A model generated the notes under the pieces. The model saw only the letters and a list, made by a program, of their open reading frames with translations. It did no database searches and had not been told where the DNA came from. Positions 37,543 to 56,901 of a stretch of DNA of 64,000 bases are shown here, in pieces. Every line of letters starts with the position of its first letter. Positions within the stretch are counted from its first letter, which is position 1. This stretch comes from Streptomyces sp. SCSIO 30461 (GTDB taxonomy: Bacteria > Actinomycetota > Actinomycetes > Streptomycetales > Streptomycetaceae): the NCBI RefSeq assembly GCF_037023745.1, contig NZ_CP146101.1:5534001-5598000 (forward strand), given 5' to 3'. The position numbers and the translations under genes are program-made.

Positions 37543-38643
37543 TCAGCGAAGAATGTCACGCAGGGCCTCCTCCAAGGCAGGTAGCTGGTCCAGCAGCATC
37601 AGATCGGCCTCGTACCGTGCCCTGCCGTAGGACTCAAGTGCGGCGTCGACGATGTGCGGACGCTTCACTGGTGCCGAGAACGGAAACGTCGAGCAGAGCA
37701 CGGCTGCACAGCCCACACGGAGCGAGGACACGAGGTCGTTCGCGGACGCCTTGGGGTTGGCATCCCGGTAGGCCAGAGCGAGATCGGTGTATCCGGTGAG
37801 CCAGCCCTCCGCACCGTTGGTCAGCACGCTGCTGGGGTCACAGCCCAGACGAGCGATTTCCCAGGCGAGGTACCCGGGTGTGGGCGGCCGGAAGTCCACG
37901 AACGCGGCGAAATCGTCGTCCTTCAACAAGACGTTGGGACCGGACAGATCGCCGTGCAGGATCTGGACCGTCAGCGGTGGAAGCGAAGCAAGGATGCACT
38001 CGACGCCACCGAAGAGAGCCTGCCGTTCACGCGTCGCCTGCAGCGACCATGCCTCGAACTCCCCAAGCCTGGGCTTGCTCTGGAACGCGGCAATCAGACC
38101 CTCATAGCTGTCTCGTGCGGTAGCCACGTCACACACCGCGGCGCCAGGTTTCAGGGTGGGTGCGGCCGCGGGGTGAGCGGCGAGCCGACGGTGGAGGCGG
38201 CCCAACGCAGTGCCCACGGCTGCCCACCGTGCACCCCTCAGGCCGCCTTCGCCGGTCGCGGTGTGGGGCACGAACGACCACAGAGACATCGGCAGAAGGC
38301 CGTCGGCCGCGATGAGTTCGTGCTCGCGCGTGCGGGTTGCCCGCGCCGTCGCGACACCTCCGTCGGCGCAGTACTCGGACAGCTCGACCGACGCCCGCTC
38401 CAGATCCAAGTGCTCCCGAGTTCGGTAGACCTTGGCGAAGTGTCGTCGGCCCGCCTGGTCCACGACGGCGTAGTTGTCCGTCGCGGTGCCCTCCGGAATA
38501 CGCGTGATGCCTGCCGGGTGCATCCCGTACGCGAGCACCAGCGTGTCGGCGACCGCCTTGAACTGCTCCCCCTCTGTGGTGCGGCCGAGCGGGGAAGGCA
38601 CAGCGACAGGGTTGGTGGCGGGCTGGTGAGATGCGGTGGACAT
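37543..38643 (-). CDS. Aminoglycoside-phosphotransferase-family kinase
   Basis: A 366-residue APH/choline-kinase-like protein. YAVVDQAGRRHFAKVYRTRE gives the ATP-binding lysine region near residue 65. The catalytic loop is ILHGDLSGPNVLL (HGDxxxxN) and the metal aspartate follows in AAFVDFRPP. The ATG follows GAGGAGACC. The substrate could be a small metabolite, an antibiotic or a homoserine-like alcohol. No adjacent gene decides this, and nothing in the sequence proves a resistance role. Confidence 0.85.
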   Translation of the reverse strand: MSTASHQPATNPVAVPSPLGRTTEGEQFKAVADTLVLAYGMHPAGITRIPEGTATDNYAVVDQAGRRHFAKVYRTREHLDLERASVELSEYCADGGVATARATRTREHELIAADGLLPMSLWSFVPHTATGEGGLRGARWAAVGTALGRLHRRLAAHPAAAPTLKPGAAVCDVATARDSYEGLIAAFQSKPRLGEFEAWSLQATRERQALFGGVECILASLPPLTVQILHGDLSGPNVLLKDDDFAAFVDFRPPTPGYLAWEIARLGCDPSSVLTNGAEGWLTGYTDLALAYRDANPKASANDLVSSLRVGCAAVLCSTFPFSAPVKRPHIVDAALESYGRARYEADLMLLDQLPALEEALRDILR

Positions 38644-39167: not shown

Positions 39168-39557
39168 GTGTCGTCCCCGCAAGTGATCACCCCCGAGGAG
39201 ATGCTCGCCGATGCGAAGAGGCAGCTGGGCTTCCCGCGTATCGTCGCGATCTGCGGCTCCACTCGCTTCATGGCCGAGATGGTCGAGGCCGATGTGCGGG
39301 AGACGAAGGCCGGGAGGATTGTGGTCAAGCCGGGTTGCGATCTGAAGTCTGCGCACGAACTCTGGTCCGATCCTGTCGAGGCTGAGGTGCTGAAGATCCG
39401 ACTCGATGAGCTGCACCGGTCGAAGATCCGGCTCGCCGATGAGGTGCTCGTGGTCGGTGACTACATCGGAGACAGCACCCGGGCCGAGATCGCCTACGCC
39501 CGGGAGCTGGGCAGGCCGGTGCGATTCACGCACCCCGAAGTCGACCCGGACGCCTGA
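39168..39557 (+). CDS. Small nucleoside 2-deoxyribosyltransferase-like protein
   Basis: A 129-residue Rossmann-like protein. The GTG follows AGGAGG. IVAICGSTRFMAEM is the typical glycine-serine-rich N-terminal loop of this superfamily, and LADEVLVVGDYIGDSTRAEIAYARELGRPV has the ...GDYIGDST.AEI..A pattern in the place of the catalytic glutamate segment. Relatives include deoxyribosyltransferases and nucleoside-phosphate N-glycosidases. It is next to, but opposite in direction to, a cluster that holds a second protein of this fold. Confidence 0.75.
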   Translation: MSSPQVITPEEMLADAKRQLGFPRIVAICGSTRFMAEMVEADVRETKAGRIVVKPGCDLKSAHELWSDPVEAEVLKIRLDELHRSKIRLADEVLVVGDYIGDSTRAEIAYARELGRPVRFTHPEVDPDA

Positions 39558-39634: not shown

Positions 39635-40636
39635 TCATGTAGCGGCGGAATGCATCGCGGCCGTGATGGCGGCAGCGAGAGGCTGCCGGTGGTCCATCAC
39701 GTAGAAGTGGTCGCCCTCGAACATCTCGAGTCCGCGGAAGCGCGTGGTGAACGCGCGCCAAGAGAGCAGGCGTTCCTCGCCGATCAGCTTGTCGCGGCGG
39801 CCCCCGAACACCGAGAGGGGAACGGGCAGCGGCTCGGACTCGTGGGGAGGCGCCCAGGTGTCCAGGAGTCTGAAGTCGCTGCGGAACACAGGGGCGAACG
39901 TGGGCCAGATGGCGTCGTTGTCGAGGAGCTGCGGGGTGCTGCCGTCGACGTCCCGCAGCCAGCCGCGCAGTTCGTCGTCGGACATCAGGTGAGGGCGGTC
40001 GTCGGTGCCAGCCTCGACTCGCGGGACACCATAGGCGGACACACCCAGCCAGGTGGGGAGCGGGCTCCCCTCATGGTGGAGTCGGCGGGTGAGCTGGTAG
40101 GCGATGAGGGCGCCCAGGCTGTGGCCGAAGAACCCGAAGGGCCGGTCGAGTAGGGGAGCGATGGCGGTGTGGAAGTAGTCGACCAGCCGGTCGCAGTCGT
40201 CGATCAGCGGCAGCGCCTGCAGCTGGCCTCGGCCGGGGGCCTCCAGGAGGCAGAGTTCCCAGTCCTGGGGGAAGTGCTCCGCCCAGCCTCGGTAGAGCAG
40301 ACTTGAGCCGCCGGCGTGGTGGAACAGGAACAGGCGCGCCGCCGGGTCGCTCAGCGGCCTCGGGCGGATGACCGGCCCGACCGGAATTGCTCCGACGCGC
40401 TTGGAGATGGCGAAGGCGTGCAACTCGGCGAGGGTCCTGGCACCGCTGACGGCCACGGTGTTCTCCGGGAGACCGTACGCGGTTTCCACGCGGGTGGAGA
40501 TCTCGAGCATCAGCAGCGAGTCGATGTCGAGCTCTTCGGCGAAGAGTGCCTCGTCGGTCATCTCCTCGGGCTCGATCTCCAGTACGCCGGCTATCAGGGC
40601 GCGGAGATCCTCCATGGTCACGGTCGCACTGGTCAT
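39635..40636 (-). CDS. Acyl carrier protein - thioesterase didomain
   Basis: A 333-residue protein. Residues 1-85 are an acyl/peptidyl carrier domain with the phosphopantetheine serine in EELDIDSLLMLEIS. Residues about 100-330 are a type II alpha/beta-hydrolase thioesterase: FLFHHAGGSSLLYRGWAEHF, the nucleophile elbow GFFGHSLGALIAYQL, and a C-terminal acid/His pair in FGGRRDKL and FEGDHFYVMDH. Such enzymes offload or edit thioester-bound chains. The ATG at 40634-40636 overlaps the upstream ketosynthase-like stop as ATGA. It is the last gene of the cluster. Confidence 0.92.
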   Translation of the reverse strand: MTSATVTMEDLRALIAGVLEIEPEEMTDEALFAEELDIDSLLMLEISTRVETAYGLPENTVAVSGARTLAELHAFAISKRVGAIPVGPVIRPRPLSDPAARLFLFHHAGGSSLLYRGWAEHFPQDWELCLLEAPGRGQLQALPLIDDCDRLVDYFHTAIAPLLDRPFGFFGHSLGALIAYQLTRRLHHEGSPLPTWLGVSAYGVPRVEAGTDDRPHLMSDDELRGWLRDVDGSTPQLLDNDAIWPTFAPVFRSDFRLLDTWAPPHESEPLPVPLSVFGGRRDKLIGEERLLSWRAFTTRFRGLEMFEGDHFYVMDHRQPLAAAITAAMHSAAT

Positions 40637-41658
40637 GGGTGTTCCCCCGGCTCCTGCGTGGATGGACGAGTGGTCGGTGAAGGGGTCAGCAGCAGGGCGG
40701 CGGCCGCGTCGTGGCGGGGGCCTCCGGCCGTGGCGAGCACGTTCCCAGTGGCGCTGCTCTCGAAGTGGGCAGCTGCGGCGGCGCACTGGAGGACGCCCAG
40801 TGCCCCGGACAGCGGGCCCAGCTGGGCTTCCAGGTCGATCCGGCGCGTGGCTGCGAGCAGCCGGCCCGCCCCGGCAGCCGCCTCGTCCCCGAGCCACAGT
40901 CCGACGGTTTCCTGCTCCGCCACACCGGCGCAGGTCAGCGCGGCGGGAAGGTCCCGGACCCGTGCGTACCCGGCGATCGTGGCGCGAGGCCGTGCGCCAC
41001 GACAAGCGGCTGCGTCCGCCGGTTCGAGGACGACGGCGACCGCCGCGTCGGTGGACTGCTCGCCGAGCAGCTTCTCCGTCACGGCGTTGGCCGGTTCGAC
41101 GCCGACGACGACGGCCCCGTCGGCGCGCCCGGCCACGATGAGGTTCCGGGCCCAGGCGAGGGCGTCCAGACCGCTCGTGACGCCGTTGCAGACGGTCACG
41201 TTGGGGCCGCGCAGCCGGTAGCGGATGGCCACCCAGCCAGCGATGACGTTGCTGGAGGTCTGGGGCAGACCCAGCGGGCTGAGGCCCCTGACGCCTTCCC
41301 TGGCGATCGTGTCGGTGGCAGCGCAGACGCTGTCCGCGTTGCCCATGTTGGTGCTGACCACGACGGCGGTCGCATCGGCCGCGCCCGTGAACGTGGCGTC
41401 GGCGTCGGCGTCGGCGTCGGTGAGACCGCCGTCGTGGAGGGCGAACTCGGCGGCCCGCAGGGCGAGCCGGGACGCACGGTCCTTGTGGCGCAGCTCGCGT
41501 CCGCTGAGCCCGGTTGCCGGGTCGAAGCCGCCCTCGCCGGGCAGGGGTCCGAGGAGGTCGCCGTACGTCGCGACACCCGGGAGCGCGAGTCCGATGCCCG
41601 TGACGACGACTCCCCGGGCGCTCGGGTTTCTCGTGTGCGCGGTGCTCGTCGCGTTCAC
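40633..41658 (-). CDS. Ketosynthase-like protein lacking the catalytic cysteine (CLF-like)
   Basis: A 341-residue thiolase-fold protein, short compared with about 410 for a full ketosynthase. In the active-site strand it reads GPNVTVCNGVTSGLDAL. Aligned with the usual ACSSG or ACTSG, the nucleophile position holds valine and a cysteine lies three residues earlier. This recalls chain-length factors, which pair with an active ketosynthase. It is GTGA-coupled to the true ketosynthase upstream and ATGA-coupled to the ACP-thioesterase, which supports a KS/CLF-type heterodimer. Confidence 0.85.
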   Translation of the reverse strand: MNATSTAHTRNPSARGVVVTGIGLALPGVATYGDLLGPLPGEGGFDPATGLSGRELRHKDRASRLALRAAEFALHDGGLTDADADADATFTGAADATAVVVSTNMGNADSVCAATDTIAREGVRGLSPLGLPQTSSNVIAGWVAIRYRLRGPNVTVCNGVTSGLDALAWARNLIVAGRADGAVVVGVEPANAVTEKLLGEQSTDAAVAVVLEPADAAACRGARPRATIAGYARVRDLPAALTCAGVAEQETVGLWLGDEAAAGAGRLLAATRRIDLEAQLGPLSGALGVLQCAAAAAHFESSATGNVLATAGGPRHDAAAALLLTPSPTTRPSTQEPGEHP

Positions 41659-42788
41659 CGGGCTGCCTCCACGATCGCGACGGCGTTGATCCCTCCGAAG
41701 CCGAACGCGTCGATCTGCGCGATGGCCAGGTCGCCGGAGGAGGGGGAGCCCTGCACCAGGCCCAGCCCCGTGGCCTCGGGGATCGGATCGGCGAGTCCCA
41801 GGACCGGGGGTACCGTCCCGATCTTCATAGCGAGCACCGCCATCACGAGGCTGAGCAGTCCCGAACCACCCAGGGTGTGGCCGGTCATCGCCTTGATCGC
41901 GGTCATCCGCGGACCGGGTCCGGCACCGGCGAAGATGCGGCGCAGGACGCTCGACTCCGTCGCGTCGTTGAGGGGGGTGCCGCTGCCGTGCAGCATCACC
42001 AGGTCGATGTCGCTCGCCCGCACCCCCGCTCTGCGGTAGGCGTCCAGCACCGTCCGGGTAACGCCGTCGGGGTCGGGCGCGGTGGCGTGGTGGGCGTCGC
42101 AGTTCATGGACACACCGCGCACCCGGGCGTGCACGGGCCCGCTCCCGGTGCCGGCGCGCTGGACGACGACGGCCGCCGCGCCCTCCCCCATCAGCATGCC
42201 CCTGTGCGTGGCATCGAAGGGGCGCAGCGCGTCGGGGATGCCGTTCTGCACCCGGTCGAGCGTGCCGAAGCCGCTCTCCGTGGCGGCGTCAGTGCCCGCG
42301 ACGACGACCGTGTCAGCCATGCCAGCCTCGACCATGTCGGTCGTCAGGCCGAGCGCGTACAGCGAGGCGGAGCAGGCGTTGGCGAAGGTGTACGTGGTGG
42401 ACGCCCCGAAGGCCGCCTGCAGGGCGGTGCCGAAGTGCAGGTCCTCAAGGGCGACATCCGCGTCGTCGCGCCACCACAGTTCGAGGCTGCGCTGTTCGCG
42501 CATGGTCGTCCCGACCAGCACGGGTACATGGGAGAGATCCTCACCCAGGCCCGCGTCGGCGACTGCCTGGCGGACAACAGCGGTGAGCCAGCGAGTGGCT
42601 CGCCGCGGTATGTCGCCGCCCTGGGGCCGGTCGTCGATCTCGTAGGCGTAGGCCGCCCGGTACTTGTCCGGGTCGAACGCCTTCAGGGGCTTGCGGCTCT
42701 CCTGGCCTGCGCACAGCGCGGCGAAGATCTCCTGGGGGCTGGCGCCGATGTTCGCGATGGCGGCCATGCCCGTGATGTCCCAGGTCAC
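41655..42788 (-). CDS. Beta-ketoacyl synthase (active KS)
   Basis: A 377-residue ketosynthase that condenses acyl units on a carrier protein. The catalytic cysteine is in FANACSASLYALGL. The two histidines are in VMLHGSGTPLNDATE and KAMTGHTLGGSG, and the C-terminal DAFGFGGINAVAIVE is standard. The start is GTG (42786-42788), overlapping the stop of the ACP-adenylation gene by GTGA. With the adjacent KS-like protein it forms a type II pair. The short operon has no ketoreductase or dehydratase, so only one or a few condensations seem likely. Confidence 0.92.
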   Translation of the reverse strand: MTWDITGMAAIANIGASPQEIFAALCAGQESRKPLKAFDPDKYRAAYAYEIDDRPQGGDIPRRATRWLTAVVRQAVADAGLGEDLSHVPVLVGTTMREQRSLELWWRDDADVALEDLHFGTALQAAFGASTTYTFANACSASLYALGLTTDMVEAGMADTVVVAGTDAATESGFGTLDRVQNGIPDALRPFDATHRGMLMGEGAAAVVVQRAGTGSGPVHARVRGVSMNCDAHHATAPDPDGVTRTVLDAYRRAGVRASDIDLVMLHGSGTPLNDATESSVLRRIFAGAGPGPRMTAIKAMTGHTLGGSGLLSLVMAVLAMKIGTVPPVLGLADPIPEATGLGLVQGSPSSGDLAIAQIDAFGFGGINAVAIVEAAR

Positions 42789-44569
42789 GGTCGGGTAGCC
42801 GCCTTCCTCAGCTCGCTGGCGGCCAGCTTGCCGGTCGACGTGGTCGGGAGCTCGTCGAGGAACTCCAGACGGGCGGGGCGCTTGTAGGCGGCGAGGCCCC
42901 CACGGATCGCGGCGGTCACCGCGCGCCGTACCACGGCCTCGTCGGATCCCGGCCGGGCCACCAGGTACGCCACGGCCTGCTCCAGGCCGTCGGCATCGCG
43001 GCCGCCGACCACCACGCAGTCCTGGACCCCTTCCACGCAGCGGATGACGCTCTCGATCTCACGCGGATAGACCTTGTAGCCGCCCAGGTTGAGCAGGTCA
43101 TCGGCGCGGCACAGATGGGTGAACGTGCCGTCCGGCGCACGGCGCACCACGTCGCCGGTGTAGGCGCCGCCGTCGGCGAAGGTGACCGCTGCGGCATCTG
43201 GCCGGCCGATGTAGCCGAGGGCAACGGTCGGGCCTGCGATGTGCAGTCGGCCCTCCTTTCCGTCGGCGACGGGCGCGCCGTCAGCGGCGCGGACGGTCGC
43301 GGTGACCCCGGGCACCGGGACCCCGAAGGTCCCTGGCCGATCCTCCCTCGGCGGTGTGCCGACGACGATGTAGAGCACCTCGGTCGCGCCGAGACCGTTG
43401 AGTAACTGGGCCTGGAAGGCGGTGCGGATCCGCTCGCTGAGCGGACCCGGCAGATTCTCGCCCGCCGCCACGCACAGCCGCACGAAGTCGACGTCGTCGG
43501 AGGCGAGCGCCGTCCCGGGAGCGTTCAACAGCGCCGCGTACAGCCGGGGGACGGAGAAGAGGACGGTTGGCCGGTGGTGCTGCAGCGCGGCGGCGAGGGA
43601 GTGGACGTCGACGGTGCCGCTGATGAGCGCGATGCGGGCGCCGGCCGCCAGGGGGCATAGGACGGAGTTGCCGAAGCCGTAGCCGAAGCTCATCCGGGCG
43701 GTGGACAGCACGGTGTCCTCGGGCGTCAGCGCCAGTACCGTGCCGATGCCCTCGGCCATGGCCGCGATCGCACCCGCCGAGTGCCGCACCCCCTTGGGCA
43801 TGCCGGTGCTTCCGGAGGTGTACTGCAAGAGCGCCTCACGGCCCGTGCTCCACGCGGCCGAGGTCCCGGCCTCCTGCGGGCGGTGCGCGGGACCGGCCTC
43901 GGCCGTCGCCAGAGCGGCGAGGACGTCAGCGCCGGTGAACCGGGTGGTCGTGGCGAACAACTCCTCCAGGGCGCGTTGCCGCGCGGGGGCCGCGTCCAGG
44001 TGCACCATCGCGGCGGCGCAGTCGGCGGCGATGTAGCGGACTTCGTCGTCCGTGAGCATCGGGCTGATCACCACGGGGACGCAGCCGTGCCACCACAGGC
44101 CGAGGACGGCGACCACGGTCGCCACGGAGTCATCGGCGACCAGGAGCCCGCGGGCGCCCTCGGGCACGCCTGCTGCCTGCAGGGCGCCCGCGTATCCGCG
44201 GGCTGCCTCCAGGAGGACCGCGTAGGTGATCTCCCCGGCCTGGGGGTCGAGGTAGCTGACCCGGTCACCCCGGCCGGCGGCGACATGGCCCGCCACCAGG
44301 AGGGCGATCAGGTCGACACGGTGGAGGCTCCTTGCCCGCTCGTCGAGCACGACCACCGCGGCGTCCAGGCTGGTGAAGGCTGCCGCTTCCTGCGCGGACA
44401 GGGCTCCGAACTCGCGCTCGACCGCGGCCACGACCTCGCCCTTCTCCAAGGAGGTCATGCCGAGTTCCTCATAGAACTGGGCACCAGGCTCGATGGCTTC
44501 CTTCTCCACCTCAAGGACAGACGCCACGATCTCTCGCAGCCTGTCGCGCGCAATGTCGATGTGTTCCAC
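42785..44569 (-). CDS. Carrier protein - AMP-dependent ligase (ACP-A) didomain
   Basis: A 594-residue protein. Residues 1-80 are a carrier domain with the phosphopantetheine site in YEELGMTSLEKGEV. The rest is an ANL-family adenylating enzyme: LLQYTSGSTGMPKGVRH (P-loop), FSVPRLYAALLN, LLNGLGATEVLYI, YTGDVVRR, RADDLLNLGGYKVYPREIE (hinge), and TSTGKLAASEL with the C-terminal lysine. It resembles benzoate-CoA-ligase-like enzymes, so an aryl or acyl acid starter is likely. The start is GTG with an AAGGA site. Domain order ACP then A is the reverse of common NRPS layout. Confidence 0.92.
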   Translation of the reverse strand: MEHIDIARDRLREIVASVLEVEKEAIEPGAQFYEELGMTSLEKGEVVAAVEREFGALSAQEAAAFTSLDAAVVVLDERARSLHRVDLIALLVAGHVAAGRGDRVSYLDPQAGEITYAVLLEAARGYAGALQAAGVPEGARGLLVADDSVATVVAVLGLWWHGCVPVVISPMLTDDEVRYIAADCAAAMVHLDAAPARQRALEELFATTTRFTGADVLAALATAEAGPAHRPQEAGTSAAWSTGREALLQYTSGSTGMPKGVRHSAGAIAAMAEGIGTVLALTPEDTVLSTARMSFGYGFGNSVLCPLAAGARIALISGTVDVHSLAAALQHHRPTVLFSVPRLYAALLNAPGTALASDDVDFVRLCVAAGENLPGPLSERIRTAFQAQLLNGLGATEVLYIVVGTPPREDRPGTFGVPVPGVTATVRAADGAPVADGKEGRLHIAGPTVALGYIGRPDAAAVTFADGGAYTGDVVRRAPDGTFTHLCRADDLLNLGGYKVYPREIESVIRCVEGVQDCVVVGGRDADGLEQAVAYLVARPGSDEAVVRRAVTAAIRGGLAAYKRPARLEFLDELPTTSTGKLAASELRKAATRP

Positions 44570-44729
44570 CGGCGGGAGTCCTTTCCGAATCTTCGTAGCC
44601 GAGCGGGATCGGGGGTGGACAGAGAGGACGAGCAGGCAACCCGCTTCCGGGGACTGCGCCGTTCACCGAGACGCGATCCGGGCGAAGATGCGGGAACGGA
44701 GCGGTGCGGCAGTCCTCGAGGGGTTGGGC

Positions 44730-45509
44730 TCAGGCGCCCAGGCCCACCTCGCAGGGGAAAGAGACAGACACACCCAGGGGCTCCTCCGTGAAGATGACCC
44801 TCTTGCCGAGCGCCGACATGAAGCCGAGCTCGAAGACGGTGCCGCTTCCCACGCGACCGCCCGGGTTGCACACGACGACAGCGTCGGCTCGCCGGAACGC
44901 GTCCATGTGCACGAACTTGTGCCGCCACGTGTCGCGCTCGTTCTTCAGCAAGTCCTGGTAGTCGAAGAGGATGAAATCCGTGCCCTCGGTTTCCGGCTTG
45001 ATCCTGGTGCTGCGGGGGCTGAGCACCTCGGTGCCGGATTCGCGCAGCTGGGTGATGGTGCCCTCGATATGCCCCAGGGACTGCTGGAAGCTGCCGCAGA
45101 CGACTGCAGTCCGAAACTCCTGCCGGATCAGACCTTCCACCATGTCGTTCGAACCGCATGCGGACAGGCCCGTGTCCAGGTAGAACCGCTCCAGCTCGGG
45201 CCCCACGATGTTGAAGTAGAGGCCCGTGTCGACGTAGAAGCTGTTGACCAGCGCGGCCGCTTCCGGCTGCGCGAGTTGCTGGAAGACTCCGGTGGCGTGC
45301 ACCCGCGTGCCCTTGTTGTCCACGGCCTCGGTGAACTCCTTGAGCCCGGCGCAGAACCCGCCGACACTGTCCGCCAGCGCCTCACCGTCGAGGCCGGCTC
45401 CAAACGGAAGCCGCTCCCTCGTAAGCAGCTGCAGCTCGCCGCTCTGGAGACGATAGACACTGACGCGCTCCGAGCCGAAGTGGACCAGGACCCTGCCCTC
45501 TGTCACCAC
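44730..45509 (-). CDS. Protein with C-terminal nucleoside 2-deoxyribosyltransferase-like domain
   Basis: A 259-residue protein. Residues 1-110 are unfamiliar, with a start like VLVHFGSERVSVYRLQSGE and HATGVFQQL that faintly recalls Ppx/GppA-type folds. Residues 130-250 are a Rossmann-like deoxyribosyltransferase-superfamily domain: TAVVCGSFQQSLGHIEGTI, FVHMDAFRRADAVVVCNPGG and SGTVFELGFMSALGKRVIF, where SGTVFELG holds the expected glutamate. The GTG start follows AAGGAG. It lies 160 bases upstream of the ACP-A gene on the same strand. A role with a nucleoside or N-glycoside in the cluster product is plausible. Confidence 0.7.
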   Translation of the reverse strand: MVTEGRVLVHFGSERVSVYRLQSGELQLLTRERLPFGAGLDGEALADSVGGFCAGLKEFTEAVDNKGTRVHATGVFQQLAQPEAAALVNSFYVDTGLYFNIVGPELERFYLDTGLSACGSNDMVEGLIRQEFRTAVVCGSFQQSLGHIEGTITQLRESGTEVLSPRSTRIKPETEGTDFILFDYQDLLKNERDTWRHKFVHMDAFRRADAVVVCNPGGRVGSGTVFELGFMSALGKRVIFTEEPLGVSVSFPCEVGLGA

Positions 45510-45600
45510 TGTGCTGTTCTCCTTCTTCTCGATCCGACGCGTTGAGAGCCCTCAGCCAGCGGGGAGTCAGCCGAGGTAGGCGCTGCGGAGAGCGGCACAG

Positions 45601-46320
45601 TCAGTCGCCTTCTCCGCGCAGAGCACTGAGGTACTTCTCGGCGAATTCCTCTTTCCTCGCCGCGTTGTATTGCGTGATGAAACGCGGGTGCTCCAAGGGC
45701 ATGATCTTCCTGAAAAAGCGCTGGACCTCGTTCACCTTCGAGAGGAATTTGAAGTTCTCGCCACTGCCGATGCAGTAGCACACCGAGGTGTCGGTTCCAA
45801 ATTCCACCTGACGTTCCAGGGAATCCACGAGGAACGCATGCAAAAGCTCCAGTAGCTTCCTATTCTCGTAGAAGTTGCAGTTGACCTCTCTCCCCTGGGC
45901 GTTCCTTCTCACCAGACCGAGAGGGCACACAAAGCTCATGACGAAGTCTGCGTAGAACCTCGTCCGGCCCCCGTAGCTCGCGATGACGTCGTGCAGGAAC
46001 CCGGCGGAGGGCCGACTCACCGCATAGCCGTCGGCGACGTCGACTCCTGTGTCGCTTTCGAGGAGCTCGGCGTCTTCGAACGGGACCCCGGTCACGGCCG
46101 TGCCCCGTCGGGCGGGCGAACTCCCCAGCACCAGACGGCGCGGCCTGTCGTCGTCGTAGTACTTGCGGTAGAACGCAGTCGTCACCTCGTGGACGCGCTC
46201 CTTCTGGGGGCCGCTGAACGGGTTGATGACCGCGAATCCGCGTGGCAGTTCAAGCGTGGTCTCCGCGAGTTCCTCGTTGAACTGCAGGATCCGATCGGCA
46301 ACGGTCTTTCGCCCGTTCAT
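45601..46320 (-). CDS. Uracil-DNA-glycosylase-like protein (SMUG2 / DUF4918 type)
   Basis: A 239-residue protein with the fold signatures of the SMUG2 branch of uracil-DNA glycosylases: INPFSGPQKERVHEVTTAFY, VLGSSPARRGTAVTGVPFED, YADFVMSFVCPLGL, VCYCIGSGENFKFLSKVN and LEHPRFITQY. In active SMUG-type enzymes the first motif is GxNPG with a catalytic asparagine, and here it is GSSPA, so serine replaces it. AGGAAGGAC precedes the ATG. A base-excision-like enzyme inside a biosynthetic operon suggests a repurposed N-glycosidase or base-binding protein. Confidence 0.75.
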   Translation of the reverse strand: MNGRKTVADRILQFNEELAETTLELPRGFAVINPFSGPQKERVHEVTTAFYRKYYDDDRPRRLVLGSSPARRGTAVTGVPFEDAELLESDTGVDVADGYAVSRPSAGFLHDVIASYGGRTRFYADFVMSFVCPLGLVRRNAQGREVNCNFYENRKLLELLHAFLVDSLERQVEFGTDTSVCYCIGSGENFKFLSKVNEVQRFFRKIMPLEHPRFITQYNAARKEEFAEKYLSALRGEGD

Positions 46321-46440
46321 GGCAGAAGTCCTTCCTTCATGCTGGTCGCTCCAGACCGACCCGTCGCCCCGACCGTCTGCGATCCTCCGCGGAACCGGTG
46401 GGACGCCGCAGCCACGGCTGCCCGGAGGGCGGTGGCAACG

Positions 46441-47688
46441 TCAGGCAGCGACCGCCGACAGATAAATCTCGGTACTTGTTGGGAACATCCGGACATCTTT
46501 GAAACCGGCGCCGTCGAGCTCCGCGCCAATCCGATTGGCGGCGTCCATCCCACGGTAGAGGTCGACGAATTCAGTACCGGGGATGATCAGTCCCGGCACG
46601 ACGCAGCCGCGCCGAGTGTACAGAAATCCGTTGGCCACTGAGACGATAATCACCGCACCAGGCTTCAGTACTCTGTGCGCTTGCACGGCCGCCGCAGACG
46701 TGTCGAAGAACGACGAGTTGTACGTCCTTAATGACACATAAAGATCGAAACTTTTCTCCGGTAGGACGGACAGGTCCTCGGCGCTGGAGACGACAGTTCT
46801 CGACTGCGGAATGCGTCCGCTTATGTTTGCAAGGCCGCTTTGCGCGATGTCGGCGAAGGTGATCTGCGGGCAGTCTGAAAAGAGAACTGCTGCTTCGTGG
46901 CCGGCGCCGACGCCGACGTTGAGGATGTTGACGGCAGACAGAAGCCGCGTGGACGACCTTCTGTAGACCGACATGAAGTCGTCGGCCCACCCCGCGTTGG
47001 TGGTCCGAGCGTCGTACGCGTAGTCATAGGTGCCGTACTTCGCGTCGAACGCTGCGGCCAGTGCGTCGCCTACGGCGCTGTCAGCCTCTTTGTACTCTGT
47101 CCCGTACCTCTGGCGGATGAGAGAGGCCAGCGCAACCCTCCCCCTGTGCGCGTTGACATCACTCCTGGACAGCGCGAATCCCTTCGATCTCAGCTCAGTG
47201 GACACGGCTTCACTGATGCGATGTGTGGAGTAGTGGGGGTTGCACTCGATGCTTTGCCCGCTCGCCGCGTAGAGGTCTCGGTTCTGCTCCAGGATCTCGC
47301 GCTGCAAATCGTCGGGGAAGCGGAGTACATGTCCTCGCTCGGTGGCTGGATCGCCATCGAGGTAGCTGGTCAGCGCGGGGTCCGGCAGGCCGATGTACAC
47401 CTTGTCGATCCGCACGTCGTTCAAGAGCGCGGCCAGTTCGAACGACCCGGCCGCCGACAGGGTGTTGATCGTCAGATAGGCGCTGTGCGCGCTCGACGTC
47501 CTGAGTTCTTGAACCCTGCGCCGTAGAACGCGATACCAAGATGCACCGCGTACTTCACCCTCGAAGGCGGAGCTAATCAACTCGTCGTGCTCAGAAACGA
47601 GCGCAACGCCGACCCGTCGACCTGGCTGCGGAGCCTTTTGTGCAACGCCAATGACGTATTTCATCCAATAGGTACTGTTCAGGCTCAT
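46441..47688 (-). CDS. Deaminase-like domain fused to a SAM-dependent methyltransferase
   Basis: A 415-residue protein. Residues 1-150 resemble the RibD/cytidine-deaminase fold (RRVGVALVSEHDELISSAFE, AYLTINTLSAAGSFELAALL, IDKVYIGLPDPALTSY). The zinc ligands of real deaminases (HAE and PCxxC) are not where expected. Residues about 250-410 are a class I methyltransferase: ILNVGVGAGHEAAVLF, ITFADIAQ, AEDLSVLPEKSFDLYVSLRT and HRVLKPGAVIIVSVAN. The start is uncertain. ATG 47686-47688 has AAGG upstream, and another ATG is four codons earlier. As the first gene of the cluster it probably follows the promoter. Confidence 0.75.
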   Translation of the reverse strand: MSLNSTYWMKYVIGVAQKAPQPGRRVGVALVSEHDELISSAFEGEVRGASWYRVLRRRVQELRTSSAHSAYLTINTLSAAGSFELAALLNDVRIDKVYIGLPDPALTSYLDGDPATERGHVLRFPDDLQREILEQNRDLYAASGQSIECNPHYSTHRISEAVSTELRSKGFALSRSDVNAHRGRVALASLIRQRYGTEYKEADSAVGDALAAAFDAKYGTYDYAYDARTTNAGWADDFMSVYRRSSTRLLSAVNILNVGVGAGHEAAVLFSDCPQITFADIAQSGLANISGRIPQSRTVVSSAEDLSVLPEKSFDLYVSLRTYNSSFFDTSAAAVQAHRVLKPGAVIIVSVANGFLYTRRGCVVPGLIIPGTEFVDLYRGMDAANRIGAELDGAGFKDVRMFPTSTEIYLSAVAA

Positions 47689-48117: not shown

Positions 48118-49260
48118 CTACAGCGTCGCCGACCACCCGCCGCGAGACAGGGTGGTTTCGCCGTTCGGGGTGATGCTGACCCGGGCGCCGTACACGGGCA
48201 GTTCCCCGAGCCAGTTGAGGCGGTCGAGGATGTCCTCCAGGGGGTCCCACAGGCGGCGGGGGCCGCCCTGGTACACGGTGGCAGCTTCGCGGGGGGCGGT
48301 GGCGTGGGCGCGGGCCCACGAGCCGTCGGGATGGGTCATCCAGACGGTGTGGCTCCGGTCCGGGTGCCACCGGTGGCGGTGCTCGATGCCGGGGGTGTGG
48401 AGCTCGAGCATGGAGCGGATGCTCCATGCTTCCGGCACGAACACGAGCAGGTGGCGGCTGGTGGTCACCTCTCCGCCGCCGTGCTTCGCCTCCACCCAGA
48501 CGGAGTCCGGGACGGTCTCCTCGTAGTCGTTGCCCTGGCGGGCGGACATGAAGAAGGCTGGCTCGAACGAGGTCTTGCCGCGGGCGCCGCCGTCCGGGGT
48601 CTTGTCGGCGTAGAGGATCAGACCGGTGCCGGTGATCGTGGTGACCAGCCGGCCGCCGGGGCGCAAGGCTTTCAGCCAGGCGGCCGGGATGGTCGGCACG
48701 GACACGGTGGACACGATCCGGTCGTACTCACCGGGCAGCGGCCCCTGGGTGAGGTCGCAGACGGCGGTCTCGGGGCGCAGCCCGATGGAAGCGAGCCGGT
48801 CGGTGGCGGAGGCGACGAGGTACGGGTCGACGTCGACACTCGTCACCAGATCGGAGCCGAGGCGTTGGCAGGCCAGGGCGGTGCCATAGCCCGTGCCGGT
48901 CGTCACCAACGTACGGCACCCGTCGACCAGTTCCGCGTGCCGGTACATCCCGATGACCAGGCCCGGCTCCGTCGAGGACGACGTCGATACCCCTGATGTG
49001 ACGACGGTGCCGGGCTCGGCGTCGTCGGCGTGCAGGGCCCCGATCCGCGTCACCAGCGTGGTGTCGCTGTACGCGGCGGCGAGCCATGCTTCGGGGGCGG
49101 CCGCACCGTCGCGCACCACCCGGCCGCCAGCATTCTGGTCCCGCTCGTACCAGCGTGGCACGAGTAGGTGCCGGGGGGTGTCGGCGACGACGGCCCCCCA
49201 GCGGGATCCGGGCCGGTCGACCTCGTCGGCCAACCGCCTCGCGTGCATCTGCCAGTCCAC
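48118..49260 (-). CDS. Protein-isoaspartate-type O-methyltransferase homologue
   Basis: A 380-residue SAM-dependent methyltransferase. The GTG at 49258-49260 follows a GGGAG site. The N-terminal part has LADEVDRPGSRWGAVVADTP and HLLVPRWYERD. The SAM site is LVTTGTGYGTALACQRLG, followed by VTSVDVDPYLVASATDRL and the post-motif YDRIVSTVSV. A C-terminal extension of about 150 residues ends GETTLSRGGWSATL. Relatives occur with ATP-grasp and lanthipeptide maturation genes in actinobacteria, so a peptide substrate is possible. It is directly downstream of a radical SAM gene (31 bases). Confidence 0.85.
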   Translation of the reverse strand: MDWQMHARRLADEVDRPGSRWGAVVADTPRHLLVPRWYERDQNAGGRVVRDGAAAPEAWLAAAYSDTTLVTRIGALHADDAEPGTVVTSGVSTSSSTEPGLVIGMYRHAELVDGCRTLVTTGTGYGTALACQRLGSDLVTSVDVDPYLVASATDRLASIGLRPETAVCDLTQGPLPGEYDRIVSTVSVPTIPAAWLKALRPGGRLVTTITGTGLILYADKTPDGGARGKTSFEPAFFMSARQGNDYEETVPDSVWVEAKHGGGEVTTSRHLLVFVPEAWSIRSMLELHTPGIEHRHRWHPDRSHTVWMTHPDGSWARAHATAPREAATVYQGGPRRLWDPLEDILDRLNWLGELPVYGARVSITPNGETTLSRGGWSATL

Positions 49261-49291
49261 GTCCGCTCCCTTTCTTCGTCCCCGAACGCCG

Positions 49292-50152
49292 TCAGCCCAT
49301 CGGGCCACAGGAGCCGCCCCCGGACGAACTGTCGTCCGAAGGGCCGCAGTCCGGCCCGCACGGGTCCGCCGAAGCCCGAGCCGGGACGCTCGCGCACGCC
49401 TGCGCCCACTCGGGGCTGGCCAGGACCGACGCGAGCGGCACCTCCCGGACACTGCCCATCGCCAGGAAACGGCCGATCTCGCAGGGAGCCACCCGACCGT
49501 CAGGCAGAACGGCAGCCTTGCCAACGGCGCACCGCCCGCACAGCGACGACGTGGACGGCAGAAGGCCGCCGGAGGCGCGCCCGACCGCGCGGACCTTGTC
49601 GACGGTGGCGGCGACCCCGAGGGCCTCCATCTCGGCGCGGGCCTGCTGTGCCCGCTGGCCGTTGCCGTGGTCGACGATGGCGACCCGCAGCCTAACGCCC
49701 CGGCGTACCGCCTCGACGATGGATGCGCGCGTCGCCGCGTGGGACCCGTCCCGGCCGGTGATCGCGTCGTGCTCGGCGGCGGTATCGCTGTGATAGGTGG
49801 TCGCCACGCGCACCCGCGGGTCCTCGAAGAGGCGCCAGTGCTCGGCGCGGACCTTGTAGAAGTTGGAGTGGACCCGGACGTTCAGGCCGACGCGCAGGGC
49901 GTGTTCGACGAGCAAGGCGAACTGCGGGTGCAGGGTGGGCTCGCCGCCGATGAACGTCACGGTGCTCGTCCCGAGAGCGGCGGCCTCATCGATGAGCCGG
50001 TGCCAGTCGTCGGCCGTCATGCTGCCGTGGTCCCGGGTCGGTCCGGCCTCGGCATAGCACTGGGACGGGCAGGTCAACTGGCAGCGGGAGGTGATTTCCA
50101 GCGAGAGGTGATCGAGCAACGTGGCAGAGGGGCGTTCGTCCAGCACGGTCAT
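49292..50152 (-). CDS. Radical SAM protein with C-terminal cysteine-rich (SPASM-like) tail
   Basis: A 286-residue radical SAM enzyme. The start at 50150-50152 follows GGGAGAAC. The cluster motif reads SRCQLTCPSQCYAEAGPT, i.e. C-x3-C-x3-C rather than the canonical C-x3-C-x2-C. TFIGGEPTLHP is the standard SAM-contacting GGEP motif. Further cysteines are LCGRCAVGKAAV and DGRVAPCEIGRF, then a terminal CGPDCGPSDDSSSGGGSCGP that could hold auxiliary clusters. Peptide modification is a reasonable inference from the neighbouring methyltransferase. No certain precursor gene is seen. Confidence 0.85.
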   Translation of the reverse strand: MTVLDERPSATLLDHLSLEITSRCQLTCPSQCYAEAGPTRDHGSMTADDWHRLIDEAAALGTSTVTFIGGEPTLHPQFALLVEHALRVGLNVRVHSNFYKVRAEHWRLFEDPRVRVATTYHSDTAAEHDAITGRDGSHAATRASIVEAVRRGVRLRVAIVDHGNGQRAQQARAEMEALGVAATVDKVRAVGRASGGLLPSTSSLCGRCAVGKAAVLPDGRVAPCEIGRFLAMGSVREVPLASVLASPEWAQACASVPARASADPCGPDCGPSDDSSSGGGSCGPMG

Positions 50153-50235
50153 CGGGTTCTCCCTGTATGTGTGGCCCAGCATGCCGGGCCAGGGGCGGGT
50201 GTGTGGGTGGAACGGGGCTGTTGCCGTGCCCGCCG

Positions 50236-50273
50236 ACGTCGCGGGGGAATGAACCGCCTGCGGGCACGGGACC
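50236..50273. repeat. Imperfect 38-bp direct repeat, copy 1
   Basis: It matches 50962-50999 at 32 of 38 positions (shared core GTCGCGGGGGAA and GCGGGCACGGG). Copy 2 covers the last codons of the gene at 50976, so copy 1 looks like the leftover 3' end of a second copy of that gene. Confidence 0.55.
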
Positions 50274-50456
50274 CACGGCTCCCTACGCCGCCGGGGGACG
50301 GCCTTCATCCCGGAACCGGCCCGTACGCGTGTCCGGCGGGCGCGGGGGTCATCAGCCGGATGCAGAGGAAGCCACGAGGTGGGCCATCTCCGCGCAGGCT
50401 CCAGCCGCGGGGGAGGAGACGACCAGTCGTAGGACTGCCGAACCGCACTGTGGTGG

Positions 50457-55249: not shown

Positions 55250-56527
55250 TCACGGAGCGGCTGCTTCGAACTGGCCATAGAGCGGTACCGCGTCGAGCGG
55301 GTCGTTCTTGCTGGTGTCGATGGTGCCGTCGGGCCGGTTGTAGACGTCGTCGGCGAGGGTGGATTCGGCGCTCCAGTCGCCGGCGGTATTGCGCTCCGAC
55401 AGCGGGACTAGGGCCTCGGCCATGTCGGTGTTCGGTCCCGCCCGCAGGCTGTGGGAGGTGACCTTGAGGCCGTTGATGAGGGCCACGCCCGCGGCCTCCG
55501 CGCGGGCCTTGACCATCTCGTTGACGGCCCGGCCGGTGAGGAAGAGGCCCCGCACGGTCGCGTTCTTCCGACGCTTGAGGTTGCCGGTGGTGGTCAGGGC
55601 GCGGAGGAGCGGCTTGGTCGGCAGGTACGCGGGCTCACCGTCCGCCGGGTTCTGGTCGTGCTCGGTGGGCTCGCGCATTTCGCGCAGATCAGCGAGCCAG
55701 GCGCGTACGCGGGCGACGATCCGCAGGTCGTCGCGGTCGCGGATGAAGCGCCACCGGCCCTTGCCCTTGCGGCGCGTCTTGCTCTTCGCGGTCCACACCC
55801 ACACCCCGTCGGTGTCTACCCGGATCTGCTTGACCAGCAGGTCCGTGACCTCGATGGAGCGGTAGAGCATCCCGTAGTGCAGGACGAGCATGGCCGCGTC
55901 GCGGCGCCCGATCCGGGTGCTCTCGTCGATCTCGGCGAGCACCCTGACCAGGTACTTCATGGTCAGACCGGCCGACTGCTCCTTCTCTCCTCCGGCCGGG
56001 ATGAATTCCTCCAGCCGATAGTCCTCGATCATCTCGCGGACCAGGGAGGCGTCCGGCCGCACCCCCTTCGGGTACCAGGAGACGATCCGGGAGCAGTAGG
56101 CGAGCAGACTGTCCGGGCTGTACCTGCTGCCGTCCGGCTTCCCCGTCTCCATGAGGTAGCCGAAGTACGCGGCGACGTTGGCCGTCGTGGTGGTGGGCCG
56201 GGCGACGCGCCCCTCCTTGATGCACCACTGCTCGAAACGGGTGCGCGTGGAGTCGCGGTTGACCCGGGTGGTGCGGGCGCCGCGCTCGGTGATCCGCTTC
56301 TTCACACTGGGCGGGACGGTGATGTCCTTCGCGGTGAAGGGCGGGTCCTCCTCGGCGCGCGGCGGCAGCTCCCCCTCGGCGAGGATGGTGTGCCGGGTGA
56401 CGCGGAAGGCGGGCGCCGACTCGACATCGGCGGCGGCGGGCAGCCGAGTTGAGGCGTCGTCGTCGACGAGTTCGGCGTCGACGACTTCTCCGGTAGCGGC
56501 CACGTCGAGCGCCGCCTTGGTCGTCAC
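55250..56527 (-). CDS. Tyrosine recombinase / site-specific integrase
   Basis: A 425-residue recombinase. The N-terminal SAM-like core-binding domain includes RVNRDSTRTRFEQWCIKEGR and SPDSLLAYCSRIVSWYPKG. The catalytic domain has the first arginine in YGMLYRSIEVTDLL, the HxLR box in SHSLRAGPNTDMAEAL, and a C-terminal AGDWSAESTLADDVYNRPD with the nucleophilic tyrosine. I start at GTG 56525-56527, which overlaps the stop of the upstream small gene by GTGA. It probably mobilises the element on its right or left. No tRNA is adjacent. Confidence 0.85.
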   Translation of the reverse strand: MTTKAALDVAATGEVVDAELVDDDASTRLPAAADVESAPAFRVTRHTILAEGELPPRAEEDPPFTAKDITVPPSVKKRITERGARTTRVNRDSTRTRFEQWCIKEGRVARPTTTTANVAAYFGYLMETGKPDGSRYSPDSLLAYCSRIVSWYPKGVRPDASLVREMIEDYRLEEFIPAGGEKEQSAGLTMKYLVRVLAEIDESTRIGRRDAAMLVLHYGMLYRSIEVTDLLVKQIRVDTDGVWVWTAKSKTRRKGKGRWRFIRDRDDLRIVARVRAWLADLREMREPTEHDQNPADGEPAYLPTKPLLRALTTTGNLKRRKNATVRGLFLTGRAVNEMVKARAEAAGVALINGLKVTSHSLRAGPNTDMAEALVPLSERNTAGDWSAESTLADDVYNRPDGTIDTSKNDPLDAVPLYGQFEAAAP

Positions 56528-56901
56528 CACCCCGCGACGGCGGGTTCCGGCTGCGGCTGGTCCGTCCAGGCGGAGGCGCGGGTGGCCAGCTCGTCGGGGG
56601 CGAAGTCGTACCGGTAGTCGGGATGCTGGTCCCATCCGGTGGCGATGTGGCGCAGGGCCTGACCGAGACCGTCGATGACACCGATCTGCCAGTCATGGCG
56701 GCGCCACGGGGCGGTGACCGGGTGAAGTTCGTCGTAGGCGGCGAGCAGGGTGAGGACTCCGTCGGTTACGGGCCCGTCCTGGCCGGCTTCGTGCATCCGG
56801 GCGGTGACGAACGCCACCAGAGCCTCATCGACCGCGAACTGCTCGGGGTCGTGGGCGTCCGGGACGCCAGGCTCTACATGGTTGGCCTCATGAAGATTCA
56901 A
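56524..56901 (-). CDS. Hypothetical protein upstream of and coupled to the integrase
   Basis: A 125-residue acidic protein, with DPEQFAVDEALVAFVTARMH, DGVLTLLAAYDELHPV and WQIGVIDGLGQALRHIATGW. The preferred start is TTG 56899-56901, which overlaps the stop of the preceding small frame by TTGA and follows AAGGGTG. An upstream ATG at 57024 would give a longer, less protein-like N-terminus. No known domain. It may be a recombination accessory factor judging only by position. Confidence 0.55.
   Translation of the reverse strand: MNLHEANHVEPGVPDAHDPEQFAVDEALVAFVTARMHEAGQDGPVTDGVLTLLAAYDELHPVTAPWRRHDWQIGVIDGLGQALRHIATGWDQHPDYRYDFAPDELATRASAWTDQPQPEPAVAGW

What the first reader, a model, noticed from the sequence alone, without database searches (positions are those of the whole stretch)
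39635..47688. Biosynthetic cluster joining a KS pair and carrier-ligase with nucleobase-enzyme folds
One strand encodes ACP-adenylation, KS, KS-like and ACP-thioesterase proteins with overlapping codons. Close upstream lie proteins with deoxyribosyltransferase-like, uracil-DNA-glycosylase-like and deaminase-like/methyltransferase folds. I know no described pathway with this combination. A product in which a short aryl or acyl chain is joined to, or assembled with, a nucleoside or base-like unit is a possible reading.
Basis: partly seen in the sequence, partly recalled or inferred. Interest (0 to 1): 0.82.

Follow-up and report, generated by a model that had tools for sequence, protein, structure and literature searches.

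The report
Aminobenzoate polyketide cluster with nucleotide enzymes
A conserved, mobile Streptomyces gene cluster pairs a small polyketide assembly line, probably started from an aminobenzoate, with three enzymes of nucleotide and DNA-base chemistry; the product and the purpose of the pairing are unknown and can be tested.

Summary
The minus strand encodes DeamMT, UDG, NDT, ACP-A, KS, KS-like and ACP-TE, then a convergent small NDT-like gene and a kinase-like gene. The seven-gene block is colinear in 20 distinct loci (window included), 19 with all nine genes. UDG hits 10 of 392 genomes of the genus.

The modules are separable. KS-like relatives occur in 70 of 353 genomes; ten fetched loci have ACP-A, KS and KS-like without the trio. 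Saccharothrix luteola has the trio and no close KS-like.

Five of those ten relatives encode anthranilate synthase or PhzE, and the nearest shares the ligase pocket. The starter is probably an ortho-aminobenzoate. It is not the cispentacin type.

The trio is a methyltransferase with a metal-site-less deaminase domain, a SMUG2-like protein with Ser at the usual Asn, and a half-PPX/GppA domain fused to a DNPH1-like N-glycosidase.

A new combination; product unknown. Whether the trio builds or protects is undecided.

The parts
46441..47688 (-). DeamMT: N-terminal RibD/cytidine-deaminase-like domain without zinc ligands or catalytic Glu, helical linker, C-terminal class I SAM methyltransferase
45601..46320 (-). 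UDG: SMUG2-type uracil-DNA-glycosylase-superfamily protein, motif GSSPAR in place of GINPGR
   Evidence: PF03167; 5h0j/5h0k 224 bits; 60-61% identity to Listeria proteins named SMUG2/UDG; GSSPAR in 117 of the 120 listed (of 1,913 found), Ser at that place in 119 of 120
44730..45509 (-). NDT: residues about 4-130 half of a PPX/GppA (ASKHA) fold, residues about 131-259 DNPH1/nucleoside-deoxyribosyltransferase fold with the GTxFELG Glu
42785..44569 (-). ACP-A: carrier protein fused to a benzoate-CoA-ligase-like adenylation domain
   Evidence: Pfam; TIGR02262 314 bits (cut-off 375.25); 2v7b/4eat; pocket residues
41655..42788 (-). KS: ketosynthase with Cys-His-His triad
   Evidence: Pfam; nearest solved structure by sequence 6kxd chain A; triad 17 of 17
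40633..41658 (-). KS-like partner (chain-length/cyclization-factor-like), active-site Cys replaced by Gly
   Evidence: Pfam; alignment; Asn-Gly at the site in 17 of 17
39635..40636 (-). ACP-TE: carrier protein fused to a thioesterase
   Evidence: Pfam; DSL and GHS motifs 17 of 17 (one row has DSM)
39168..39557 (+). NDT2: small nucleoside-deoxyribosyltransferase-like protein (STRAEIAYA motif), convergent with the operon
   Evidence: present in 19 of 19 nine-gene loci; motif; no NCBIfam hit; fold assignment is mine from the motif
37543..38643 (-). APH-fold phosphotransferase, divergent from NDT2
   Evidence: PF01636 59.2 bits; HGD and VDF motifs

Best explanation
The locus is a horizontally spread, two-module biosynthetic cassette. 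Module 1: the A domain adenylates an ortho-aminobenzoate (anthranilate or a close relative) and loads it on the first ACP. KS with its catalytically dead partner performs one or a few condensations with malonyl on the second ACP. With no ketoreductase in the cassette, the fused thioesterase releases a beta-keto product of the 2-aminobenzoylacetate type, which can close to a quinolone or be captured. Module 2: the NDT, the methyltransferase with its dead deaminase domain, the UDG-fold protein, the small NDT2 and the kinase act on a nucleotide, so that the aminoaryl unit ends in a methylated nucleotide or nucleoside conjugate. Shown: gene content, colinearity, intact or lost catalytic motifs, and starter-supply genes in half of the relatives examined. 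Inferred: starter, number of condensations, release product, and the coupling to a nucleotide.
For: Seven-gene block in 20 distinct loci, window included, nine genes in 19. Trio and KS module co-vary in divergence (Mantel r 0.63, p 0.0005, 19 loci). KS-like and ACP-TE read as one 670-residue frame in L016 and as one annotated protein in plasmid L045. A domain: benzoate-CoA ligases are its nearest solved relatives. Of the BadA pocket residues Y228, G327, S328, T329, H333, I334 (passages of PMC7277991) the 17 aligned cassette proteins have Tyr in 16, Gly-Ala-Thr in 17, Tyr (12) or His (5), and Ile (13) or Thr (4). Of the ten best non-cassette relatives of KS-like that I fetched, all ten with ACP-A and KS, five carry a chorismate-to-anthranilate-type enzyme: L113 anthranilate synthase (TIGR01815, 966 bits, cut-off 739); L122 PhzE (600 bits to 3r74), with L119, L120 and L121 61-80% identical to the L122 copy. 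PhzD lies in L120-L122. L113 is the closest relative and shares the window's pocket motifs. The Saccharothrix trio sits beside TDO-like (Pfam 103.6 bits, over the cut-off 34.9), amidase and aminotransferase genes, which by known chemistry (recalled) could give a 2-aminobenzoyl unit from tryptophan. The NDT-family Glu is intact in 118 of the 120 listed.
Against: No gene for joining an acyl unit to a nucleotide is evident. The UDG is close to widespread glycosylase-family proteins, which suggests DNA as substrate. KS modules of this family occur without the trio, and the trio without KS. No chorismate enzyme was found in the held flanks of the 20 fetched loci L011-L030 or in the window (plasmid loci not tested), so anthranilate would have to come from primary metabolism. 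Five of ten relatives show no such enzyme in 20 kb, and L118 has unrelated neighbours. The Saccharothrix TDO-like protein is far below the NCBIfam cut-off (132 against 390.7 bits). Co-variation may reflect linkage alone: neighbouring genes correlate most and it fades with distance; NDT2 and kinase co-vary weakly with the trio (r 0.22, p 0.06) and with the KS module (r 0.39, p 0.008).
Confidence: 0.4

Rival explanations
1. The trio and NDT2 are self-protection, not synthesis. The PKS module makes a compound that enters the nucleotide pool or DNA as a modified base; the DNPH1-like NDT and NDT2 hydrolyse the bad nucleotide, and the SMUG2-like protein excises the base from DNA.
For: DNPH1 is called a nucleotide-pool sanitiser and is solved with hydroxymethyl-dUMP (listing of PMC10603095; PDB titles); SMUG1 excises many bases (listing of PMC12699328). 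The UDG is 60-61% identical to Listeria glycosylase-family proteins and nearest to 5h0j. DNA glycosylases are known self-resistance genes in genotoxin clusters (listings of PMC9040887, PMC8626424, PMC8934636). The host already has three other UDG-superfamily places. NDT2 and the kinase persist in three broken cassettes.
Against: The motif that normally holds the catalytic Asn reads GSSPA, so glycosylase activity is uncertain. The methyltransferase and dead deaminase have no obvious protective role. The three broken cassettes lost the trio but kept part of the PKS genes. Searches showed no UDG-type self-resistance (search 86 listed 12 of 14 papers, abstracts only).
Confidence: 0.27
2. The trio is an independent nucleotide-maintenance or mobile-element module that travels next to the PKS genes without sharing a pathway with them.
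For: 91-160 bp gaps between trio genes and before ACP-A, against 4-base overlaps within the PKS genes of the window. Trio without KS in Saccharothrix, with an integrase gene nearby. Apparent UDG-NDT pairs on the same metagenome contigs (matching contig lengths 19997 and 9208).
Against: 20 of 21 distinct trio loci examined have the KS module in the same order. The one exception has a different aromatic-precursor module in the same place.
Confidence: 0.18
3. The KS pair is a cispentacin or coronafacic-acid-type KS-CYF that makes a cyclopentenone from 2-oxoglutarate.
For: The AmcF model is the best NCBIfam hit of KS (189.5 bits). The paper describes minimal-type clusters with amcB, F, G, H homologues (sections 7, 9, 10 of PMC10698177 read).
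Against: Below the AmcF cut-off (189.5 against 325), while other ketosynthases in the genus score up to 272 without reaching it. In the tree the six AmcF rows form a 100/100 clade without KS, though the deep order is unresolved. In four sampled AmcF loci ACP-A matches one ligase at 24% and KS-like matches nothing (that open-frame list was filtered by GC3 and may miss genes).
Confidence: 0.03

Closest known systems
Highly reducing type II PKS ketosynthase/chain-length-factor pair 6kxd (ishigamide, name recalled)
   Same: Nearest solved KS by sequence (174 bits); active KS plus a Cys-less partner
   Different: No ketoreductase in the cassette; starter ligase fused to an ACP; thioesterase fused to an ACP; surrounded by nucleotide enzymes
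Aminobenzoate-type relatives in Streptomyces (L113, L119-L122 here)
   Same: Related ACP-A (51-66%), KS (60-74%) and KS-like (52-64%) in the same order; L113 has the same pocket motifs
   Different: They carry anthranilate synthase or PhzE, some PhzD, and a ketoreductase-type SDR, and lack the trio
Cispentacin AmcF/AmcG/AmcH (PMC10698177)
   Same: KS plus inactive partner plus ACP plus adenylating enzyme outside ordinary aromatic PKSs
   Different: Family cut-off not reached; separate clade; ligase not similar in sampled loci
MilB / DNPH1 nucleotide N-glycosidases
   Same: Fold and catalytic Glu motif of the NDT C-terminal half (DNPH1); MilB is a biosynthetic N-glycosidase in mildiomycin (listing of PMC4081090; its kinship to NDT is recalled)
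   Different: Extra N-terminal half-PPX/GppA domain; substrate unknown; no sequence match to the PDB at E 0.1
SMUG2 DNA glycosylase (5h0j/5h0k; organism and name recalled, entries titled uncharacterized)
   Same: Nearly full-length match, 224 bits, and the HPRFIxQY motif
   Different: GSSPAR instead of GINPGR in motif 1; located in a biosynthetic cassette

Membership tests
Cispentacin KS AmcF (NF058662) | score above curated cut-off 325 bits | tested here: not met
   189.5 bits; 6 of 199 genomes of the genus have a member over the cut-off, the window genome not
Cispentacin minimal-type cluster | AmcG (CYF) homologue by NCBIfam cut-off | tested here: not met
   KS-like scores 21.3 against NF058659 cut-off 80; no match in four sampled AmcF loci
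Cispentacin minimal-type cluster | AmcH-type 2-oxoglutarate ligase | tested here: inconclusive
   ACP-A matches one ligase in four AmcF loci at 24%; AmcH itself was not identified there
Type II PKS KS/CLF pair | KS with Cys-His-His plus partner without the Cys | tested here: met
   17 of 17 for both
Highly reducing type II PKS | ketoreductase/dehydratase in the cluster | tested here: not met
   no SDR among ten window proteins scanned; the relatives' SDR matches only once, at 33%, among 20 cassette-side loci; an aldo/keto reductase lies upstream in 5 of 18 loci
Benzoate-CoA ligase family TIGR02262 | score above cut-off 375.25 | tested here: not met
   314 bits
Benzoate-CoA ligase family TIGR02262 | aryl-acid pocket and aryl activation | tested here: inconclusive
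   pocket mostly kept; activity not testable here
UDG superfamily / SMUG2 | family profile match | tested here: met
   PF03167 35.4 bits over cut-off 24.3; 5h0j 224 bits
UDG superfamily / SMUG2 | motif-1 Asn (GINPG-type; role recalled) | tested here: not met
   Ser at that place in 119 of 120 listed, GSSPAR in 117
NDT/DNPH1 N-glycosidase | fold and nucleophile Glu | tested here: met
PPX/GppA phosphatase | complete two-domain catalytic fold | tested here: not met
   about 123 residues align, the rest of the protein is the NDT fold
Cytidine/RibD deaminase | H/CxE and PCxxC zinc site | tested here: not met
   0 of 120 listed; PF00383 below cut-off

The most novel reading that the evidence does not exclude
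The cassette makes a nucleotide antimetabolite whose 'base' is the aminoaryl ketide itself, for example a 4-quinolone formed from 2-aminobenzoylacetate. The NDT exchanges it for the natural base of a (deoxy)nucleotide, the methyltransferase caps it, and the small NDT2 and the SMUG2-like glycosylase clean the producer's own pool and DNA: a PKS-built nucleobase with built-in base-excision immunity. In Saccharothrix the same role would be filled by a kynurenine-derived unit.
Probability: 0.08. Interest if true: 0.92.

Novelty: new variant of a known kind. Interest (0 to 1): 0.62.

Why it matters
No cluster was found in the searched library that joins a type II PKS starter/KS module to a DNPH1-like N-glycosidase, a UDG-fold protein and a methyltransferase. 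It is conserved, compact (about 10 kb) and found on chromosomes and plasmids, so it can be moved into a laboratory host whole. Its relatives give a concrete starter prediction. It would show either how an aryl polyketide is joined to a nucleotide, or a new form of self-resistance in which a uracil-DNA-glycosylase-type enzyme and a pool sanitiser guard a producer.

Tried and rejected
Cispentacin/coronafacate reading: suggested by the top NCBIfam hit, rejected by cut-off, tree and ligase comparison. A 3-amino-4-hydroxybenzoate reading of L118, from its aldolase and dihydroxyacetone-kinase neighbours, was dropped when its amino-acid kinase proved argB-like. A tie to the upstream radical-SAM and PCMT-like genes (48118-50308) was dropped: only distant PCMT matches (30-34%) in a few loci. 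Viral contigs: no NDT relative. Rfam: no match in the window. Promoter and terminator scan: nothing above chance. NDT profile against PDB sequences: none at E 0.1. NDT in 249 and 394 further genomes drawn around Saccharothrix: only Saccharothrix itself at E<=1e-15. In 394 genomes of the window's class, 12 matched at E<=0.001, of which only the window genome full-length. First KS tree had five rows translated from the wrong strand and was replaced. VIA-align of the DeamMT model listed only methyltransferases, so its N-terminal fold was not tested by structure. Listeria gene neighbourhoods could not be reached.

Full report
WHAT IS THERE. The window lies in a single-contig genome of 8.05 Mb; the genus is Streptomyces, inferred because three of its relatives are named Streptomyces contigs of the same length. 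The minus strand reads DeamMT, UDG, NDT, ACP-A, KS, KS-like, ACP-TE; a small NDT-like gene (39168-39557, +) faces its end, and an APH-fold kinase-like gene (37543-38643, -) lies beyond it. In the window the PKS genes overlap by 4 bases each (the ACP-TE start, 40636, is my reading of the sequence); the trio genes are spaced by 91 and 120 bp and end 160 bp before ACP-A. A promoter/terminator scan found nothing above shuffles, and Rfam had no match.

HOW CONSERVED. UDG hits 10 of 392 genomes of the genus, 80-100% identical, the window's own included. The 9 non-window loci all carry the nine genes in order. A scan of named genomes with the NDT profile gave 11 loci. Six plasmid records hold the NDT. 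Three, fetched, carry all nine genes; one is a partial NDT match with no UDG or KS annotated nearby; one is the same plasmid as L018 by length; one (H2) was not fetched. This gives 20 distinct loci with the seven-gene block, window included, and 19 with all nine. Divergence of trio and PKS module co-varies (Mantel r 0.63, p 0.0005, 19 loci), most between neighbours, so linkage alone could explain it; NDT2 plus kinase co-vary weakly with the trio (r 0.22, p 0.06) and the PKS module (r 0.39, p 0.008).

ARE THE MODULES SEPARABLE? Yes. KS-like relatives at E<=1e-15 occur in 70 of 353 genomes of the genus. I fetched 20 of the listed places, mostly the best-scoring ones outside the cassettes, so not a random sample. 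Three (L110-L112) are broken cassettes: KS-like, NDT2 and the kinase gene match over nearly their whole length, ACP-TE at least in part; ACP-A is broken in L110 and L111, and in L112 ACP-A is gone and only the end of KS is left. No trio gene matches there, and these three genomes have no UDG hit and no real NDT (0, one 22.6-bit partial match, 0). L112 has a transposase fragment at the break. Ten (L113-L122) have ACP-A (51-66%), KS (60-74%) and KS-like (52-64%) without the trio; in L117 and L119 the ACP-A match covers only the ligase part; a carrier-protein match follows in nine, and in L118 only a thioesterase. Seven (L123-L129) have KS (53-57%) and KS-like (46-50%) without a comparable ACP-A. 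Conversely, Saccharothrix luteola (L029) has DeamMT 67%, UDG 72%, NDT 63% and an NDT2-like gene 51%, with no KS, KS-like, ACP-A, ACP-TE or kinase match in the 19.4 kb held; in its whole genome the best KS-like match is 43.9 bits, 38% over 144 residues. In place of the PKS genes are an amidase, a TDO-like protein and a class I/II aminotransferase.

MODULE 1, AN AMINOBENZOATE STARTER. The A domain is nearest to benzoate-CoA ligases among solved structures but under the TIGR02262 cut-off (314 against 375). Of the BadA pocket residues named in PMC7277991 (passages seen: Y228, G327, S328, T329, H333, I334) the 17 aligned cassette proteins have Tyr 16 of 17, Gly-Ala-Thr 17 of 17, Tyr 12 or His 5 of 17, Ile 13 or Thr 4 of 17. 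The relatives say more. L113, the closest, encodes an anthranilate synthase (TIGR01815, 966 bits, cut-off 739) beside the KS module, plus a ThyX-like protein and a nitrosuccinate lyase, both over their cut-offs. The L122 copy of a second enzyme scores 600 bits to PhzE 3r74, and L119, L120 and L121 have copies 61-80% identical to it. L120-L122 encode PhzD (329 bits to 1nf9 for the L122 copy), and L119, L121 and L122 share a protein that I read as class II DAHP synthase (not confirmed by a profile). So 5 of 10 relatives carry an anthranilate- or PhzE-type enzyme; the other five show none within the 20 kb held. L113 shares with the window the pocket stretches VAAGENLP and GLGATEVL-H/Y-IVVG. None of the 20 fetched loci L011-L030 (17 distinct) has such an enzyme in its flank, nor does the window, so the starter would come from primary metabolism.

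MODULE 1, CHAIN CHEMISTRY. KS keeps Cys, His and His in 17 of 17; the partner has Gly at the Cys site in 17 of 17; both carrier Ser and the thioesterase GHS motif are kept in 17 of 17. The nearest solved KS by sequence is 6kxd. KS and KS-like each form a 100/100 clade apart from the 100/100 AmcF clade; the deep branching is unresolved. Relatives have a ketoreductase-type SDR near the ACP; the cassette does not. The simplest inferred output is a released or cyclised beta-keto acid such as 2-aminobenzoylacetate, which by general knowledge can close to 2,4-dihydroxyquinoline.

WHAT IT DOES. I rank first a joint pathway to an aminoaryl-nucleotide product (0.40), second a protective trio (0.27), third linkage without shared function (0.18). 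Saccharothrix is the most telling locus: trio and an NDT2-like gene stay, while the aromatic module changes to one that could give a 2-aminobenzoyl unit from tryptophan. Against this, the TDO-like protein, over the Pfam cut-off, is far under the NCBIfam one, and it is a single case.

NOVELTY. Each part is of a known family; the combination and the NDT architecture were not found in print. Papers: PMC10698177 abstract, outline and sections 7, 9, 10 read; PMC7277991 passages; PMC9040887, PMC8626424, PMC8934636, PMC10603095, PMC12699328 and PMC4081090 seen in search listings only. SMUG2 biochemistry, PQS-type 2-aminobenzoylacetate chemistry, kynurenine chemistry and the name ishigamide are recalled.

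Noticed in passing
L023 14992-16521; L030 13817-15004; L015 15431-16675: Single genes read as IscB-like (L023) and TnpB-like (L030, L015) are inserted at different gene junctions of the KS operon in three relatives (names are my reading of the sequences).
   Followed up: no
L016 14460-16472; plasmid locus L045 15855-17867: KS-like and ACP-TE read as one 670-residue frame in L016 and are annotated as one protein in L045: a natural fusion of partner and release domains.
   Followed up: no
L011 13867-15336 and five more loci; plasmid loci L043, L045: A helix-turn-helix plus peptide-deformylase protein (Pfam on the L011 copy, the rest by similarity) lies divergently upstream of the trio in 6 of 18 loci compared, and a gene annotated peptide deformylase in two plasmids: a possible regulator or resistance gene.
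   Followed up: partly
L012 6646-7959 and four more loci: An aldo/keto reductase gene (Pfam on two copies) sits upstream of DeamMT in 5 of 18 loci compared, perhaps a variant tailoring step.
   Followed up: partly
L113 11078-19521: A relative KS cluster combines anthranilate synthase, a ThyX-like protein, a distant HsaA-like oxygenase and a nitrosuccinate lyase, suggesting an N-N or diazo product. The same genome (G315) also holds a broken copy of the cassette (L110).
   Followed up: partly
L043, L044, L045: The cassette lies on large Streptomyces plasmids (S. anulatus, S. chartreusis, S. halstedii) with NUDIX hydrolase genes downstream.
   Followed up: partly
window 48118-50308: A PCMT-like methyltransferase (nearest TIGR04188, ATP-grasp peptide maturase system, below cut-off) and a radical SAM/SPASM gene: perhaps a separate peptide-modifying pair.
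   Followed up: no
window 55250-56635; L029 15422-16675: Phage-integrase-family genes near the cassette in the window and near the trio in Saccharothrix, consistent with mobility.
   Followed up: no
   Followed up: no
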